64,000 nt of DNA, taken from the IMG/VR virus record IMGVR_UViG_3300035156_000206, positions 62,001 through 126,000 of that record. One strand, 5' to 3'. Both the position numbers and the translations under genes were made by a program. Shown here in pieces: positions 8,335-16,468 of the stretch (its first letter is position 1; each line of letters begins with the position of its first letter). A model generated the notes under the pieces. That model was not told where the DNA came from, ran no database searches, and worked only from the letters and a program-made list of their open reading frames with translations. The stretch comes from a virus.

Positions 8335-8711
8335 TGCTACCAAGTGAACTCCTGATTGCGGCGAAAGCCGTGATCACTTCTCCAGAATGCTGGACAACAG
8401 ATACATTTGCGCGTAATGCACAAGGAATGCCAGTATCTCCTTGGGCACCAACAGCCACATGTTGGTGCTCAGTTGGGGCAATGCAGAAAGTAGGATACAA
8501 GCCAATGGAAGATGGCGCCCCCAACCCTGGGCTACTGTATGGGGATGATGAAGGTGATACGGAACTGATTCAGAGTACCGCTATTCACTTTTTGTTCCAT
8601 GCCTTTGGCCCGGACGGAATTGGTACAAATAACGACCGATTGTCACATTCAGGAGTAATGGCTGTCTGGGACAAAGCTATCGAAGCAGCGAAACGAAAGG
8701 AAGTGGAATGA
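8334..8711 (+). CDS. DUF6197-like protein, paralogue 1 of 3
   Basis: Encodes 125 residues from the ATG at 8334 (AGAGGAA upstream, TAATG overlap). Shared pattern with the next two genes: an N-terminal helix LLIAAKAVITSPECWTTDTFARN, then CWCSVGAMQK, and near the end a G/HP-x-V-x-x-WDKAIE helix (SGVMAVWDKAIEAA). This resembles the DUF6197 family found in phages and actinobacteria, function unknown. The three genes are in tandem and diverged, so they arose by duplication. Confidence 0.65.
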   Translation: MLPSELLIAAKAVITSPECWTTDTFARNAQGMPVSPWAPTATCWCSVGAMQKVGYKPMEDGAPNPGLLYGDDEGDTELIQSTAIHFLFHAFGPDGIGTNNDRLSHSGVMAVWDKAIEAAKRKEVE

Positions 8712-9058
8712 CCACACCACTTGACCTACTAGTAGAAGCTCGTGCCTTAATTGCTGAGCGTAAGAACTGGATTTCTGGTGCATACGCTCAGAACGAGCAT
8801 GGCCGTGAAGTGAACCCTCGCAGTGAGCAGGCTTGCAAGTTCTGCTCATTGGGTGCAATCCAGCGAGCCTATGCAAATCGCAACATTGTTGACCCGTCAG
8901 TTGGGCTCTTTGTTGACTACGAAGCGCGTCACGCATTGGAGAAGGTTGTGGGATCCATCGCCTTGTTCAATGACAAGCATGGTCACCCTCAAGTGTTGGC
9001 TGCTTGGGACAAAGCAATTGAATCACTACGATTGGAACAAAATGCAAACGACAGCTGA
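8708..9058 (+). CDS. DUF6197-like protein, paralogue 2 of 3
   Basis: Encodes 116 residues; ATG overlaps the upstream stop. Same domain as its neighbours: LLVEARALIAERKNWISGAYAQN, KFCSLGAIQRAY, FNDKHGHPQVLAAWDKAIES. This copy is closest to the published family pattern (ARALIA...W...ayA, WCalGAl, FND..gh..Vl...d.AI). Cytoplasmic, no catalytic motif evident. Confidence 0.65.
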   Translation: MTTPLDLLVEARALIAERKNWISGAYAQNEHGREVNPRSEQACKFCSLGAIQRAYANRNIVDPSVGLFVDYEARHALEKVVGSIALFNDKHGHPQVLAAWDKAIESLRLEQNANDS

Positions 9059-10209: not shown

Positions 10210-11346
10210 ATGTCAATGCATCAAGGCTACGTGTGGGATCTCGAAGTACCGCGCCGGATCGGCGATGCCAAGGTGTACATTGTTGGTGGATGGGTCCGAG
10301 ACAAGTTCATGGGTTGTCCATCACAGGACAAGGACTTCCTGGTCGTGGGTGGCACTCATGAACTGATGATCGAGCATGGTTACAAGCAAGTTGGTTTGGA
10401 CTTTCCTGTATACTTGCATCCAGAATCCGGTGATGAGTACGCACTCGCTCGCACTGAACGCAAGACTGGGCCCGGTTACGGTGGCTTCAGTACTGACAGC
10501 TCCCCTACTATTACAGTAGAAGAAGATCTGATGCGCCGTGACTTGACGATCAATGCGATGGCATTGGACCTCGAGACGGGTGAACTTATCGATCCGTGTG
10601 GTGGCCGCCACGACATGAACCGGACGTTCTTGCGCCACACAAGTGATGCATTCATGGAAGATCCAGTTCGCATCCTCCGTACGGCACGATTCGCTGCCCG
10701 CTACAACTTCAACGTTCACAAAACAACTAACGACTTCATGCGTGGCATGGTACTTGCGGGTGCCATGAACGAATTGGAGCCACATCGCGTATGGGCGGAA
10801 ATGTCACGCGGCCTGATGGAACGCAACCCACGCCAACTGTTTCAAGTCCTCGATGACTGTGAAGCACTGCGGGCAATGGAGCATCCGTGGGTTGGTGGCG
10901 TATACGCATCTGGCATCTGGATGACTGGTTACCCACTCAGCCCTCTTACCCTCCCTCAACGGTTCGCATTGATCTCCGAGCACTTCAGCCCAGAAGACTT
11001 GAAGAAGGCCCGTATTCCTACAGATTGCGCGCGGTTGAGTACAATCCTGCACGAATGGAAACACAGCGTTCCATTATATGATCAGGCAACTTCAGACACC
11101 AAGTTGAGGATGTTGGCCGGAGTAGGAGCAATTGGCAAAGATCGTGCCACTGATTTGTTCCCAAGATTCATCAGCACATTCTTGGCATGGGGTGATACAC
11201 GGTTTGATCAATTTCGTATTCCACAGATTGATCGCATGCAAACCCATGCCAATCACATTAACCTCCTTGTGCCACCAGCAGATCTCCCAGTTAAGCGGAT
11301 CCCTGAGTGGATGCTCACATCAAAGCGGGAGATTGTTCGTGGATGA
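10210..11346 (+). CDS. cca: CCA-adding tRNA nucleotidyltransferase
   Basis: Adds or repairs the 3'-CCA of tRNA. The 378-residue protein has the class II nucleotidyltransferase head: YIVGGWVRDKFMG (23-35), DKDFLVVGG (about 40-48, the metal-binding DxD region reads DKD), EEDLMRRDLTINAMALD (about 101-117), GGRHDM, and FMEDPVRILRTARFAARYNF. The C-terminal part is helical; the HD phosphohydrolase domain of E. coli Cca (412 residues) is not evident. The gene sits behind a hairpin regulator. A phage copy would restore tRNAs trimmed by host nucleases and mature phage tRNAs. Confidence 0.94.
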   Translation: MSMHQGYVWDLEVPRRIGDAKVYIVGGWVRDKFMGCPSQDKDFLVVGGTHELMIEHGYKQVGLDFPVYLHPESGDEYALARTERKTGPGYGGFSTDSSPTITVEEDLMRRDLTINAMALDLETGELIDPCGGRHDMNRTFLRHTSDAFMEDPVRILRTARFAARYNFNVHKTTNDFMRGMVLAGAMNELEPHRVWAEMSRGLMERNPRQLFQVLDDCEALRAMEHPWVGGVYASGIWMTGYPLSPLTLPQRFALISEHFSPEDLKKARIPTDCARLSTILHEWKHSVPLYDQATSDTKLRMLAGVGAIGKDRATDLFPRFISTFLAWGDTRFDQFRIPQIDRMQTHANHINLLVPPADLPVKRIPEWMLTSKREIVRG

Positions 11347-15248: not shown

Positions 15249-15890
15249 ATGAGCAAAGCATGCCACATTTGCGGACACGCCGAAGGTCAACTTGGCAGTG
15301 TGTTCTGTTCGTCTGGCATGCATTTGCCAGCCCAATCTGCCTACCCTGGTATGATCATCGTGCCTGAAGTAAAGCCAGCATTGAAGCGCGCCAAACGGCG
15401 GTCTGACTTGTGCGATGCCGACTACGCCATCTTCTTTGACATTGATGGCTGCTTCCATCCCCAAGGCGCCCCAAAATGGGCTCGTGATGGTGACCTGTTG
15501 CCAACAAGTGACCCACTCTTCATCTGGGCAGAGGCATTCGAGGAGATCATCAAGCCGTACCACAACGTTCCGTTGATCTGTCACAGCATGTGGCGGATGA
15601 TCACAACGCAGGGTGTCCTGTATCGTGCATTACCACCTGTGATGCAGTCCCGTTATTTGGATTGCACCAGCGGCAATGATCGTTACGGCTCGATCCAAAG
15701 CTTTGCCGAGGCGTTCGGGTTCAAGAAGTACATCATCATTGACGACGATGCAAGCGAGTTCCCAAAGAAGCTGGACAACTTCGTTGAATGCAATTCCCAC
15801 ACAGGGATGTCCTGTTCGACGGCACAAGCATCGCTTCGCCACAAACTGCTCACTCTGTTCGGCCCGCCCCCGCCGCCAGAAGAGGACTAA
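15249..15890 (+). CDS. HAD-family phosphatase of the RNA-repair (Swiss-army-knife) type
   Basis: Encodes 213 residues. The N-terminus has a zinc-knuckle-like CHICG...FCSSGMH (6-25). The HAD core shows motif I FFDIDGCFHP (about 62-71, nucleophile Asp in DxD), motif II LICHSMWR and motif III YIIIDDDASEFP. The DIDG...SxWR arrangement matches the HAD domain found in phage RNA-repair proteins, related to the 3'-phosphatase of PNKP. With RnlA it could heal and seal broken tRNA, but no kinase is in the window. It ends in a proline run (PPPPPEED). There is no clear ribosome site, so translation may be coupled to the lipoprotein gene 3 bases upstream. Confidence 0.75.
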   Translation: MSKACHICGHAEGQLGSVFCSSGMHLPAQSAYPGMIIVPEVKPALKRAKRRSDLCDADYAIFFDIDGCFHPQGAPKWARDGDLLPTSDPLFIWAEAFEEIIKPYHNVPLICHSMWRMITTQGVLYRALPPVMQSRYLDCTSGNDRYGSIQSFAEAFGFKKYIIIDDDASEFPKKLDNFVECNSHTGMSCSTAQASLRHKLLTLFGPPPPPEED

Positions 15891-15894
15891 ATAG
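15887..15894 (+). promoter_or_regulatory. Late-promoter-like box before the tRNA-like element
   Basis: CTAAATAG matches the core of the late-type boxes elsewhere in this window (ATAAATA with C in place of A). It lies within GGACTAAATAGTCC, itself a 5-bp inverted repeat, so its role is uncertain. Confidence 0.35.
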
Positions 15895-15903
15895 TCCACA
15901 ATT

Positions 15904-15990
15904 GCGACTTGTCCCGGTACCAGCCTTCTAAGCTGATGACGTTAAATAACTGGAAGGAGTCCAGAGGTTCAATTCCTCCAGGTCGCACCA
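15904..15990 (+). tRNA. tRNA-Arg(UCU)-like element with encoded CCA and no normal D-arm
   Basis: Acceptor strands GCGACTT (15904-15910) and AGGTCGC (15980-15986) pair over 7 bp with one G-U, followed by A and an encoded CCA (15988-15990). A TpsiC-like arm has loop TTCAATT (15968-15974) on a 4-of-5-bp stem. An anticodon-like arm has loop CTTCTAA (15925-15931), identical to that of E. coli tRNA-Arg(UCU), on a 4-bp stem. Oddly, only 10 bases separate the acceptor from the anticodon stem, too few for a D-arm. A long variable region contains a hairpin CTGGA/TCCAG (15950-15964). It is either a highly aberrant tRNA or a tRNA-like decoy RNA. Confidence 0.55.
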
Positions 15991-16015
15991 CTCATTTCTC
16001 AAATCGGATATCTAA

Positions 16016-16468
16016 ATGCGCCTGTATTGCTTCTCCCTAACTCAACTCAAACAACTGCACCAAGGTGTGCAGAACACACACTCATCTGTCGAGCTGTTCG
16101 TCAAGTACACAAACCGTGAACAGCCGCAGCAAATGTATGACATGTTATACGACTGGGCCGTTAACCACAAAACCGCAATCTTCCTAGATGGTGGCTTTGC
16201 TTTCAATCTGGTTAACCTGCGCGATGCATTAGCGGACAGCCCATATCCATGGGCTCCGTTCCATGAAGACGAAGCGACGCTGTATGGCATCATGACGTCC
16301 ATCAGCATCGTCTTGCCAGAACGGATCTACAAAGCTGCTGAATTCGTTCGGGGCGGTGGAACACTGATGTTATCTACATCAGGGAAGGTATTCTTCGACG
16401 GTAGTGTTCTGACGCAATGGGACATCAAGTTCATCGAACTGCTGAACACATTCCGCATGGCCGTGTAA
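16016..16468 (+). CDS. Conserved phage protein of unknown function
   Basis: Encodes 150 residues. The start RLYCFSLTQLKQLHQGVQNTHSSVEL and the following KTAIFLDGG faintly recall the small peptidyl-tRNA hydrolase (Pth2) fold, which begins with a strand and a helix containing Q-x-x-H. The match is weak, and I treat it as a conserved phage protein of unknown function. Overlaps the next start (TAATG). Lies just after the tRNA-like element. Confidence 0.6.
   Translation: MRLYCFSLTQLKQLHQGVQNTHSSVELFVKYTNREQPQQMYDMLYDWAVNHKTAIFLDGGFAFNLVNLRDALADSPYPWAPFHEDEATLYGIMTSISIVLPERIYKAAEFVRGGGTLMLSTSGKVFFDGSVLTQWDIKFIELLNTFRMAV

What the first reader, a model, noticed from the sequence alone, without database searches (positions are those of the whole stretch)
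15904..15990. tRNA-Arg-like RNA lacking a D-arm, with encoded CCA
Acceptor, anticodon-type loop identical to E. coli tRNA-Arg(UCU), T-arm and CCA are present, but the D-arm is absent and a variable hairpin is present. UCU tRNAs are targets of some anticodon nucleases, so a decoy is an attractive idea; a functional odd tRNA is the alternative.
Basis: partly seen in the sequence, partly recalled or inferred. Interest (0 to 1): 0.68.

Follow-up and report, generated by a model that had tools for sequence, protein, structure and literature searches.

The report
Phage tRNA with a relocated D-loop
A phage gene that looked like a broken arginine tRNA belongs to a large, unrecognised family of phage tRNAs in which the D-loop sits after the anticodon arm instead of before it, so it probably reads arginine codons with a fold that is not the cloverleaf.

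Summary
The element at 15904-15990 is real. It has acceptor stem, UCU anticodon loop, T arm and CCA, and no canonical D arm; no cloverleaf register exists. It is not decaying: 52 non-redundant relatives (class I) keep it with compensatory changes. Instead the 5' 'D' strand pairs with the variable region (H2), and the strand after the anticodon arm pairs with the strand before the T arm (H3): a pseudoknot. A D-loop-like AAGGA lies between. A second class (153 non-redundant) has UAAYUGG(A/U) in the same displaced position, with Arg and Ile anticodons and a few CAU, UAC, CUU. The base after GG is A in 124 of 124 Arg rows and 0 of 29 others; A20 is the main E. coli ArgRS determinant (PMC9976931). 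Many genes abut canonical tRNAs. In 12 of 13 phages scanned, it is the only Arg(UCU) tRNA found. Best reading: a functional AGA-reading tRNA-Arg with a rewired D arm. Lab phages phi92 and Bas60 carry one. No expression or charging data exist here.

The parts
15904..15911 (+). acceptor stem, 5' strand (8 nt, with position 8 paired to 65)
   Evidence: 8:65 pairs in 51 of 52 class I rows; helix 98.6% paired, 7 of 8 pairs covary
15914..15918 (+). H2, 5' strand (CCGGU), where the D stem would start; pairs with 15949-15953
   Evidence: 100% paired in 9 rows, 3 of 5 pairs covary; shuffles
15920..15936 (+). anticodon arm; loop 15925-15931 CUUCUAA, anticodon UCU 15927-15929
   Evidence: stem 97.8% paired, 5 of 5 pairs covary
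15938..15940 (+). H3, 5' strand (GAC); pairs with 15959-15961 and makes a pseudoknot with H2
   Evidence: 100% paired, 2 of 3 pairs covary; shuffles
15949..15953 (+). H2, 3' strand (ACUGG)
15954..15958 (+). displaced D-loop-like AAGGA (GG = G18 G19, A = A20 by analogy)
   Evidence: GG followed by A in 50 of 52 class I rows (read); class II counterpart UAAYUGG(A/U)
15959..15961 (+). H3, 3' strand (GUC)
15964..15978 (+). T arm: 4-bp stem 15964-15967/15975-15978, loop 15968-15974
   Evidence: 100% paired, 3 of 4 pairs covary
15979..15986 (+). acceptor stem, 3' strand
15987..15990 (+). discriminator A73 and encoded CCA
   Evidence: sequence; CCA encoded in 41 of 52 class I and 78 of 153 class II rows
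15249..15890 (+). context: gene just upstream, HAD domain of 'Swiss Army Knife RNA repair proteins'
   Evidence: PF18143, E 9.8e-13
10210..11346 (+). context: tRNA nucleotidyltransferase (CCA-adding enzyme) gene
   Evidence: PF01743 E 1.9e-19; phrog_2244 E 3.2e-86

Best explanation
The element is a working tRNA-Arg that reads AGA (perhaps AGG by wobble), built on a rewired core. The 5' strand of the D stem does not fold back on itself. It runs into the anticodon arm and pairs with a strand that follows that arm (H2). The D-loop, with the GG that would dock into the T loop and the A20 that ArgRS reads, comes next, just before the T arm. In the window's class (8-bp acceptor, 4-bp T stem) a further helix, H3, makes this a pseudoknot. 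The host ArgRS would charge it through A20, C35 and U36. It would be cut out of transcripts like other tRNAs and used to translate phage genes, standing in for the canonical tRNA-Arg(UCU) that the phage lacks. Shown: the sequence, the covarying helices, the association of A20 with Arg anticodons, the tRNA arrays, the lack of a canonical counterpart, AGR meaning Arg. Inferred: the L shape, the GG/T-loop docking, processing, charging, decoding.
For: Covariation of all helices in class I and class II, and shuffle tests. A after the relocated GG in 124 of 124 class II rows with Arg anticodons and 0 of 29 others; A20 is the main determinant for E. coli ArgRS (PMC9976931, passages). Anticodon-open class I scan gives only UCU (19) and CCU (3) among 22 true members of 27 stretches. 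12 of 13 phage records have this and no canonical Arg(UCU). 13 of 22 such genes lie within 17 nt of a canonical tRNA on the same strand. AGR aligns mostly with Arg in these phages. Found in named phages of E. coli, Caulobacter, Brevundimonas, Streptomyces, Bacteroides and Acinetobacter.
Against: No expression, processing or charging data. The window copy stands alone, 72 kb from the nearest canonical tRNA. Two Acinetobacter rows (L003, L004) have U, not A, after GG. U73 is the commonest discriminator in class I rows that encode CCA, 26 of 41. 75 of 153 class II and 11 of 52 class I rows encode no CCA. No control set of tRNA-rich phages was scored for canonical Arg(UCU), and 12 of the 13 records were picked through an Arg or AGR-type member. 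G015 has both kinds.
Confidence: 0.72

Rival explanations
1. Decoy or sponge: a non-translating tRNA mimic that absorbs an anticodon nuclease aimed at tRNA-Arg(UCU).
For: The anticodon loop is fully kept; phages are thought to face tRNA-cleaving defences (PMC10264068, abstract).
Against: Many anticodons including Ile, A20 kept with Arg anticodons only, tandem CCU and UCU, lack of a canonical counterpart, position in tRNA arrays. A decoy needs none of these.
Confidence: 0.07
2. Working tRNA whose odd fold was selected because host tRNA-targeting defences (nucleases, CRISPR effectors that cut tRNAs) cannot recognise it. This adds to the best explanation and does not replace it.
For: Seen in phages and, in two samples of bacterial genomes, only in one phage-like contig. 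Phage tRNAs have been proposed to evade such defences through anticodon-loop changes (PMC10264068, abstract). An RNA-repair-type gene lies next to the window copy.
Against: No defence was tested. The anticodon loop, where most such nucleases cut, is unchanged. The upstream neighbour differs in ME3.
Confidence: 0.2
3. Working tRNA of another identity: it reads AGA but carries an amino acid other than Arg, so AGA is recoded or mistranslated.
For: The core is unusual; class I has an 8/4 acceptor branch as in allo-tRNAs, which can carry Ser (PMC7609411, section 7).
Against: A20 with C35 and U36 (PMC9976931); AGR codons align with Arg, next Lys.
Confidence: 0.04
4. Another tRNA-like role: primer, RNA regulator, or virion or enzyme-binding RNA.
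For: tRNA-like RNAs have such roles elsewhere (recalled). G000 has another tRNA-like RNA with no 7-nt anticodon loop.
Against: Anticodon diversity with matching identity base, and complementarity to the canonical set.
Confidence: 0.06
5. Chance, a decayed tRNA or a misread canonical tRNA.
For: ARAGORN and Rfam (gathering) do not call it; single-sequence fold z -1.31.
Against: 52 + 153 non-redundant relatives with covarying helices in phages of six or more host genera; no cloverleaf register.
Confidence: 0.01

Closest known systems
Canonical bacterial tRNA-Arg (cloverleaf, Rfam RF00005)
   Same: acceptor, anticodon loop, T arm, CCA; D-loop motif with GG and A20
   Different: the D-loop lies after the anticodon arm; the D-stem 5' strand pairs across that arm; class I is pseudoknotted. 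RF00005 fits the phi92 copy only by skipping the D arm and inserting 20 bases
Allo-tRNA (8/4 or 9/3; PMC7609411, section 7)
   Same: class I has the 8/4 acceptor branch; odd anticodon sets; irregular tRNAs reported in soil metatranscriptomes
   Different: allo-tRNAs are described as cloverleaves with a D arm and mostly Ser or Ala identity; here no D hairpin and Arg-type identity
D-armless metazoan mitochondrial tRNA-Ser(UCU/GCU)
   Same: no D hairpin; reads AGN codons
   Different: there the D arm is lost; here its 5' strand and its loop are kept and rewired; phage, not organelle
Engineered mini HisT (PMC11551756)
   Same: a tRNA without a D arm that E. coli can use
   Different: artificial deletion of bases 11-25, no displaced D-loop
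tRNA-Sec (RF01852) and the tRNA-like domain of tmRNA
   Same: tRNA-Sec: best Rfam hit, long acceptor branch and long variable region. tmRNA: a long helix stands in for the D and anticodon stems (recalled)
   Different: tRNA-Sec has a 6-bp D hairpin and scores below its cut-off here; tmRNA carries a tag reading frame and has no anticodon loop (recalled)
Circularly permuted tRNA genes (PMC3978253)
   Same: order of tRNA segments changed in the gene
   Different: there the mature tRNA is a normal cloverleaf after processing; here ends and CCA are in normal order and the mature RNA itself would have the changed order

Membership tests
canonical cloverleaf tRNA | 7-nt anticodon loop with U33 on a stem; T arm with TTCRA loop; acceptor stem; CCA end | tested here: met
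canonical cloverleaf tRNA | D hairpin between acceptor and anticodon arm | tested here: not met
   (0 registers); H2 pairs across the anticodon arm
canonical cloverleaf tRNA | Rfam RF00005 or ARAGORN call | tested here: not met
   window. The class II copies of phi92 and Jay2Jay do pass RF00005 gathering (38.6 and 30.8 bits), those of phiCbK, tikkala and Kabachok do not
tRNA-Arg (functional) | bacterial Arg identity set: A20, C35, U/G36, A/G73 | tested here: met
   window has AAGGA, UCU, A73 by sequence; class-wide; U73 is common in relatives
tRNA-Arg (functional) | aminoacylation and decoding | not testable with these tools
   needs biochemistry
tRNA-Sec | UCA anticodon, 6-bp D hairpin, score above family cut-off | tested here: not met
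   anticodon UCU; 31.8 bits against 47
allo-tRNA | 8/4 or 9/3 acceptor branch | tested here: met
   8/4 in class I; class II is 7/5
allo-tRNA | cloverleaf with D arm | tested here: not met
tmRNA | tag reading frame; no anticodon loop | tested here: not met
   87-nt element with anticodon loop; ARAGORN calls a separate tmRNA at G000 8,650-9,044
circularly permuted tRNA gene | 3' half encoded before 5' half | tested here: not met
   acceptor 5' strand first and CCA last
anticodon-nuclease decoy | bound or cut by a nuclease in place of the host tRNA | not testable with these tools
   needs biochemistry; indirect evidence is against

The most novel reading that the evidence does not exclude
Phages encode a whole structural class of working tRNAs that are not cloverleaves: the D-loop, with its T-loop-docking GG and the A20 that ArgRS reads, has been moved to the far side of the anticodon arm, in one branch with a pseudoknotted core. 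It serves the Arg codons and at least Ile, replaces canonical isoacceptors in phage tRNA arrays, is carried by laboratory E. coli and Caulobacter phages, and may persist because host tRNA-targeting defences cannot grip it.
Probability: 0.62. Interest if true: 0.93.

Novelty: new variant of a known kind. Interest (0 to 1): 0.87.

Why it matters
The order of arms in the cloverleaf is held to be near universal; a 2024 paper states that all known bacterial tRNAs adopt it (PMC11551756, abstract). A natural tRNA set with the D-loop displaced would show that the L shape and an identity element can be kept while the order of segments is changed. That bears on tRNA evolution, on what ArgRS, IleRS, RNase P, EF-Tu and the ribosome really read, and on the design of orthogonal tRNAs. 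It also means that phage tRNA repertoires are under-counted: a published list of 16 tRNAs for the phi92-like phage BME3 has no Arg (PMC12210895). Because phi92 and Bas60 grow on E. coli, the question can be tested now.

Tried and rejected
Variable hairpin 15950-15964: rejected, not conserved. Decoy: disfavoured. Canonical register: rejected. A 9-bp acceptor with position -1 paired to 73, seen in the first four sequences (note): dropped after reading more rows. A pairing of the anticodon loop with GGAAGG: dropped, since in most rows GGAAGG is half H2 strand and half D-loop. AGR recoding: no sign. One search placed H3 in the wrong columns by mistake (18.5% paired for that helix); the right columns are. 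An early table gave, for Arg anticodons, 126 A and 4 not A, and for the rest 3 A and 35 not A. The 4 were mis-anchored matches (their printed rows show GGA), two of the 3 were GCG (Arg) and one was a chance row; one search uses the 3'-most motif. Plasmids: one record, a 29-base match. E. coli genomes: none. The first viral scan mostly caught ordinary tRNAs and was not used further for counts of the class. A blast of a second odd RNA of G000 matched at most about 42% of it in the rows listed. The promoter and terminator scan gave no promoter and nothing useful.

Rows dropped before counts: class I 62 to 52 and class II 166 to 153 by 90% similarity. Rows with anticodons other than Arg, Ile, CAU, UAC, CUU, and L070, were removed as noise before that. 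Class II membership required a D region that starts TA, so invariant U8 and A9 are by construction; T loops had to read TTCRA. Ninety of the 321 rows were left unclassed. For A4 I aligned 23 of the 26 equal-length class II rows listed, and for A3 the window plus 8 of the 9 class I rows listed there (L195 left out because its D-loop spacing differs).

Full report
What was claimed.

Checking it. The sequence is as described. ARAGORN finds no tRNA in the 64-kb window, Rfam finds nothing at gathering score, and the only credible sub-threshold match is tRNA-Sec at 31.8 bits against a cut-off of 47. A search for any cloverleaf register with a D hairpin in 15861-16040 gave none. Folding one sequence proves little: MFE -24.6 kcal/mol, z -1.31, 23 of 200 shuffles as stable. 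The window lies in a 291,967-base virus record, G000.

Relatives. blastn finds the element, unannotated, in Acinetobacter phage ME3 and, weakly, in R2096-like and Saclayvirus phages. Pattern scans of IMG/VR then gave 19 stretches, 27 with the anticodon left open and 76 with the stem left open. Of the 27, as read, 22 are true members and 5 are unrelated; the 22 carry UCU (19) or CCU (3) and nothing else, so class I is an AGR-reading set. Record G004 has CCU and UCU copies in tandem at 66,812-66,899 and 66,906-66,990.

Structure, class I. In 52 non-redundant members the acceptor is 8 bp and the T stem 4 bp: 8:65 pairs in 51 of 52 as G-C, C-G, A-U, U-A or U-G, whereas 49:65 pairs in 3 of 52. The strand where the D arm should start pairs, over 5 bp in most rows, with a strand in the variable region (H2). 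The strand just after the anticodon stem pairs with the strand just before the T arm (H3). H2 and H3 interleave, so this is a pseudoknot. With Watson-Crick pairs only, the mean longest helix is 4.58 against 3.44 in 1000 shuffles for H2 (highest shuffle 3.77), and 3.56 against 2.36 for H3 (highest 2.71). On a gapless alignment of nine 99.1% of 225 cells pair, 20 of 25 pairs change on both sides, and the covariation score is 0.831 against at most 0.122 when partners are slid.

Structure, class II. A scan that asked only for CUUCUAA and a long gap, and one that ignored the anticodon, brought in a second, larger class: acceptor 7 bp, T stem 5 bp, U8 A9, a short H2 strand, the anticodon arm, the other H2 strand, then UAAYUGG(A/U), then the T arm. 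On 23 gapless sequences 93.5% of 460 cells pair and 18 of 20 pairs change on both sides; H2 is 100% paired with all three pairs covarying. Over 153 non-redundant rows the H2 shuffle test gives 2.73 against 1.78, highest shuffle 1.99. UAAYUGG is the usual D-loop motif A14 R15 Y16 Y17 G18 G19 (numbering recalled), placed after the anticodon arm instead of before it. In class I the corresponding motif is shorter: AAGGA, AUGGA or ACGGA.

Identity. In class II the base after GG is A in 124 of 124 rows with Arg anticodons (UCU 82, ACG 19, UCG 12, CCU 8, GCG 2, CCG 1), and in 0 of 29 with UAU 15, GAU 9, CAU 3, UAC 1, CUU 1 (27 U, 1 C, 1 G). Among the 75 rows that match the anticodon-blind pattern it is 57 of 57 and 0 of 18. 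Rows are related, so these are not independent events. For comparison, canonical tRNAs of 13 phage records have A there in 7 of 8 Arg and 17 of 200 others (275 found, 67 without a motif match). In class I, A follows GG in 50 of 52 rows (read by eye); in the 31 rows of the AAGG type, where the scan pattern left that base free, it is 29 of 31. The identity review says that A20 in the D loop is the main determinant for E. coli ArgRS, with C35, position 36 and A/G73 (PMC9976931, passages). The displaced loop therefore still looks like one that ArgRS reads.

Genomes. In 13 phage records read whole from stretches (G000, ME3, CRR8, R2096, G001, G003, G004, G005, G006, G011, G012, G013, G015) 12 have a displaced-D-loop Arg(UCU) and no canonical Arg(UCU) by ARAGORN; G015, with 67 canonical calls, has both. 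Several are otherwise rich: G000 has 29 calls plus tmRNA with only Arg(ACG), G004 has 34 covering all 20 amino acids with only Arg(ACG), R2096 has 17 with no Arg. Of 22 such genes in these records 13 lie within 17 nt of a canonical tRNA on the same strand; in R2096 one base separates the CCA from tRNA-Thr. The window's own copy stands alone, 72 kb from the nearest. With AGR codons masked, they align chiefly with Arg (25.9%) and Lys (14.9%); CGN gives 36.1% and 14.5%. The window phage also encodes a CCA-adding enzyme.

Named phages. Class II members sit in or beside tRNA arrays of E. coli phages phi92, PaulScherrer (Bas60) and cardinal (UCU), Caulobacter phiCbK and Brevundimonas Kabachok (ACG), and crAss-like 'tikkala' (GAU); Streptomyces Jay2Jay has a GAU copy. 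They are unannotated there, except 'tRNA-OTHER' in cardinal and three other rows. The general tRNA model of Rfam does score the phi92 one (38.6 bits, cut-off 29), but only by skipping the D arm and inserting 20 bases after the anticodon arm: the rearrangement as seen by a model that cannot express it. A published tRNA list for the phi92-like phage BME3 has 16 tRNAs and no Arg (PMC12210895, passages).

Bacteria. Model R1 at E <= 1e-7 matched 0 of 185 genomes of the class of G019 and 1 of 198 of the phylum of G020. The second search held a known positive, which is the one that matched; the first held none, so its empty answer is weak. The match is a MAG contig with phage-type protein families. 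Only 24-25 candidates per genome were scored. This suggests, and does not prove, that the fold is confined to phages.

How it most likely works. Acceptor and T stem stack as usual (12 bp together in both classes). H2 stacks on the anticodon stem in place of the D stem. At its far end the chain leaves as the displaced D-loop, whose GG would dock into the T loop to make the elbow and whose A20 would face ArgRS; then comes the T arm. This is inference from the anatomy. That E. coli's machinery can use a tRNA with no D arm at all was shown with an engineered tRNA-His (PMC11551756, abstract and passages).

Literature. Ten searches and the review of non-canonical tRNAs (PMC7609411: outline, passages, section 7; no occurrence of 'phage' in its text) showed no description of this class. 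Only open-licence PMC papers were searched. Mukai et al. 2017, on allo-tRNAs and irregular tRNA-like RNAs, was known to me here only through that review and should be read first.

Noticed in passing
G000 267,892-267,966, minus strand (L336 7892-7966 -), outside the window: A second tRNA-like RNA of the same phage, between tRNA-Leu(UAG) and tRNA-Ala(UGC): 7-bp acceptor, 5-bp T arm, ACCA, a possible CCCGC/GCGGG helix, but a tetraloop hairpin where a 7-nt anticodon loop should be. 38.5 bits with the class II model; ARAGORN misses it.
   Followed up: partly
window 15249-15890 +: The gene that ends 13 nt before the element has a HAD domain of 'Swiss Army Knife RNA repair proteins' (PF18143, E 9.8e-13). 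A link with tRNA repair is possible; the neighbour in ME3 is different.
   Followed up: partly
G000 8,650-9,044, minus strand, and window 10210-11346 +: The phage encodes a tmRNA by ARAGORN (tag ANDSQFKVAAYA) and its own CCA-adding enzyme, besides 29 ARAGORN tRNAs.
   Followed up: no
L361 4-80; L447; L343, L360, L388: Single or few displaced-D-loop tRNAs with UAC (Val), CUU (Lys) and CAU (Met or lysidine-modified Ile) anticodons, all with U after GG: the class may reach beyond Arg and Ile.
   Followed up: partly
L460 (Bacteroidota MAG contig, 14,031 bases): The only contig of the bacterial samples that rang; two class II copies on it, probably phage DNA binned with the MAG.
   Followed up: partly
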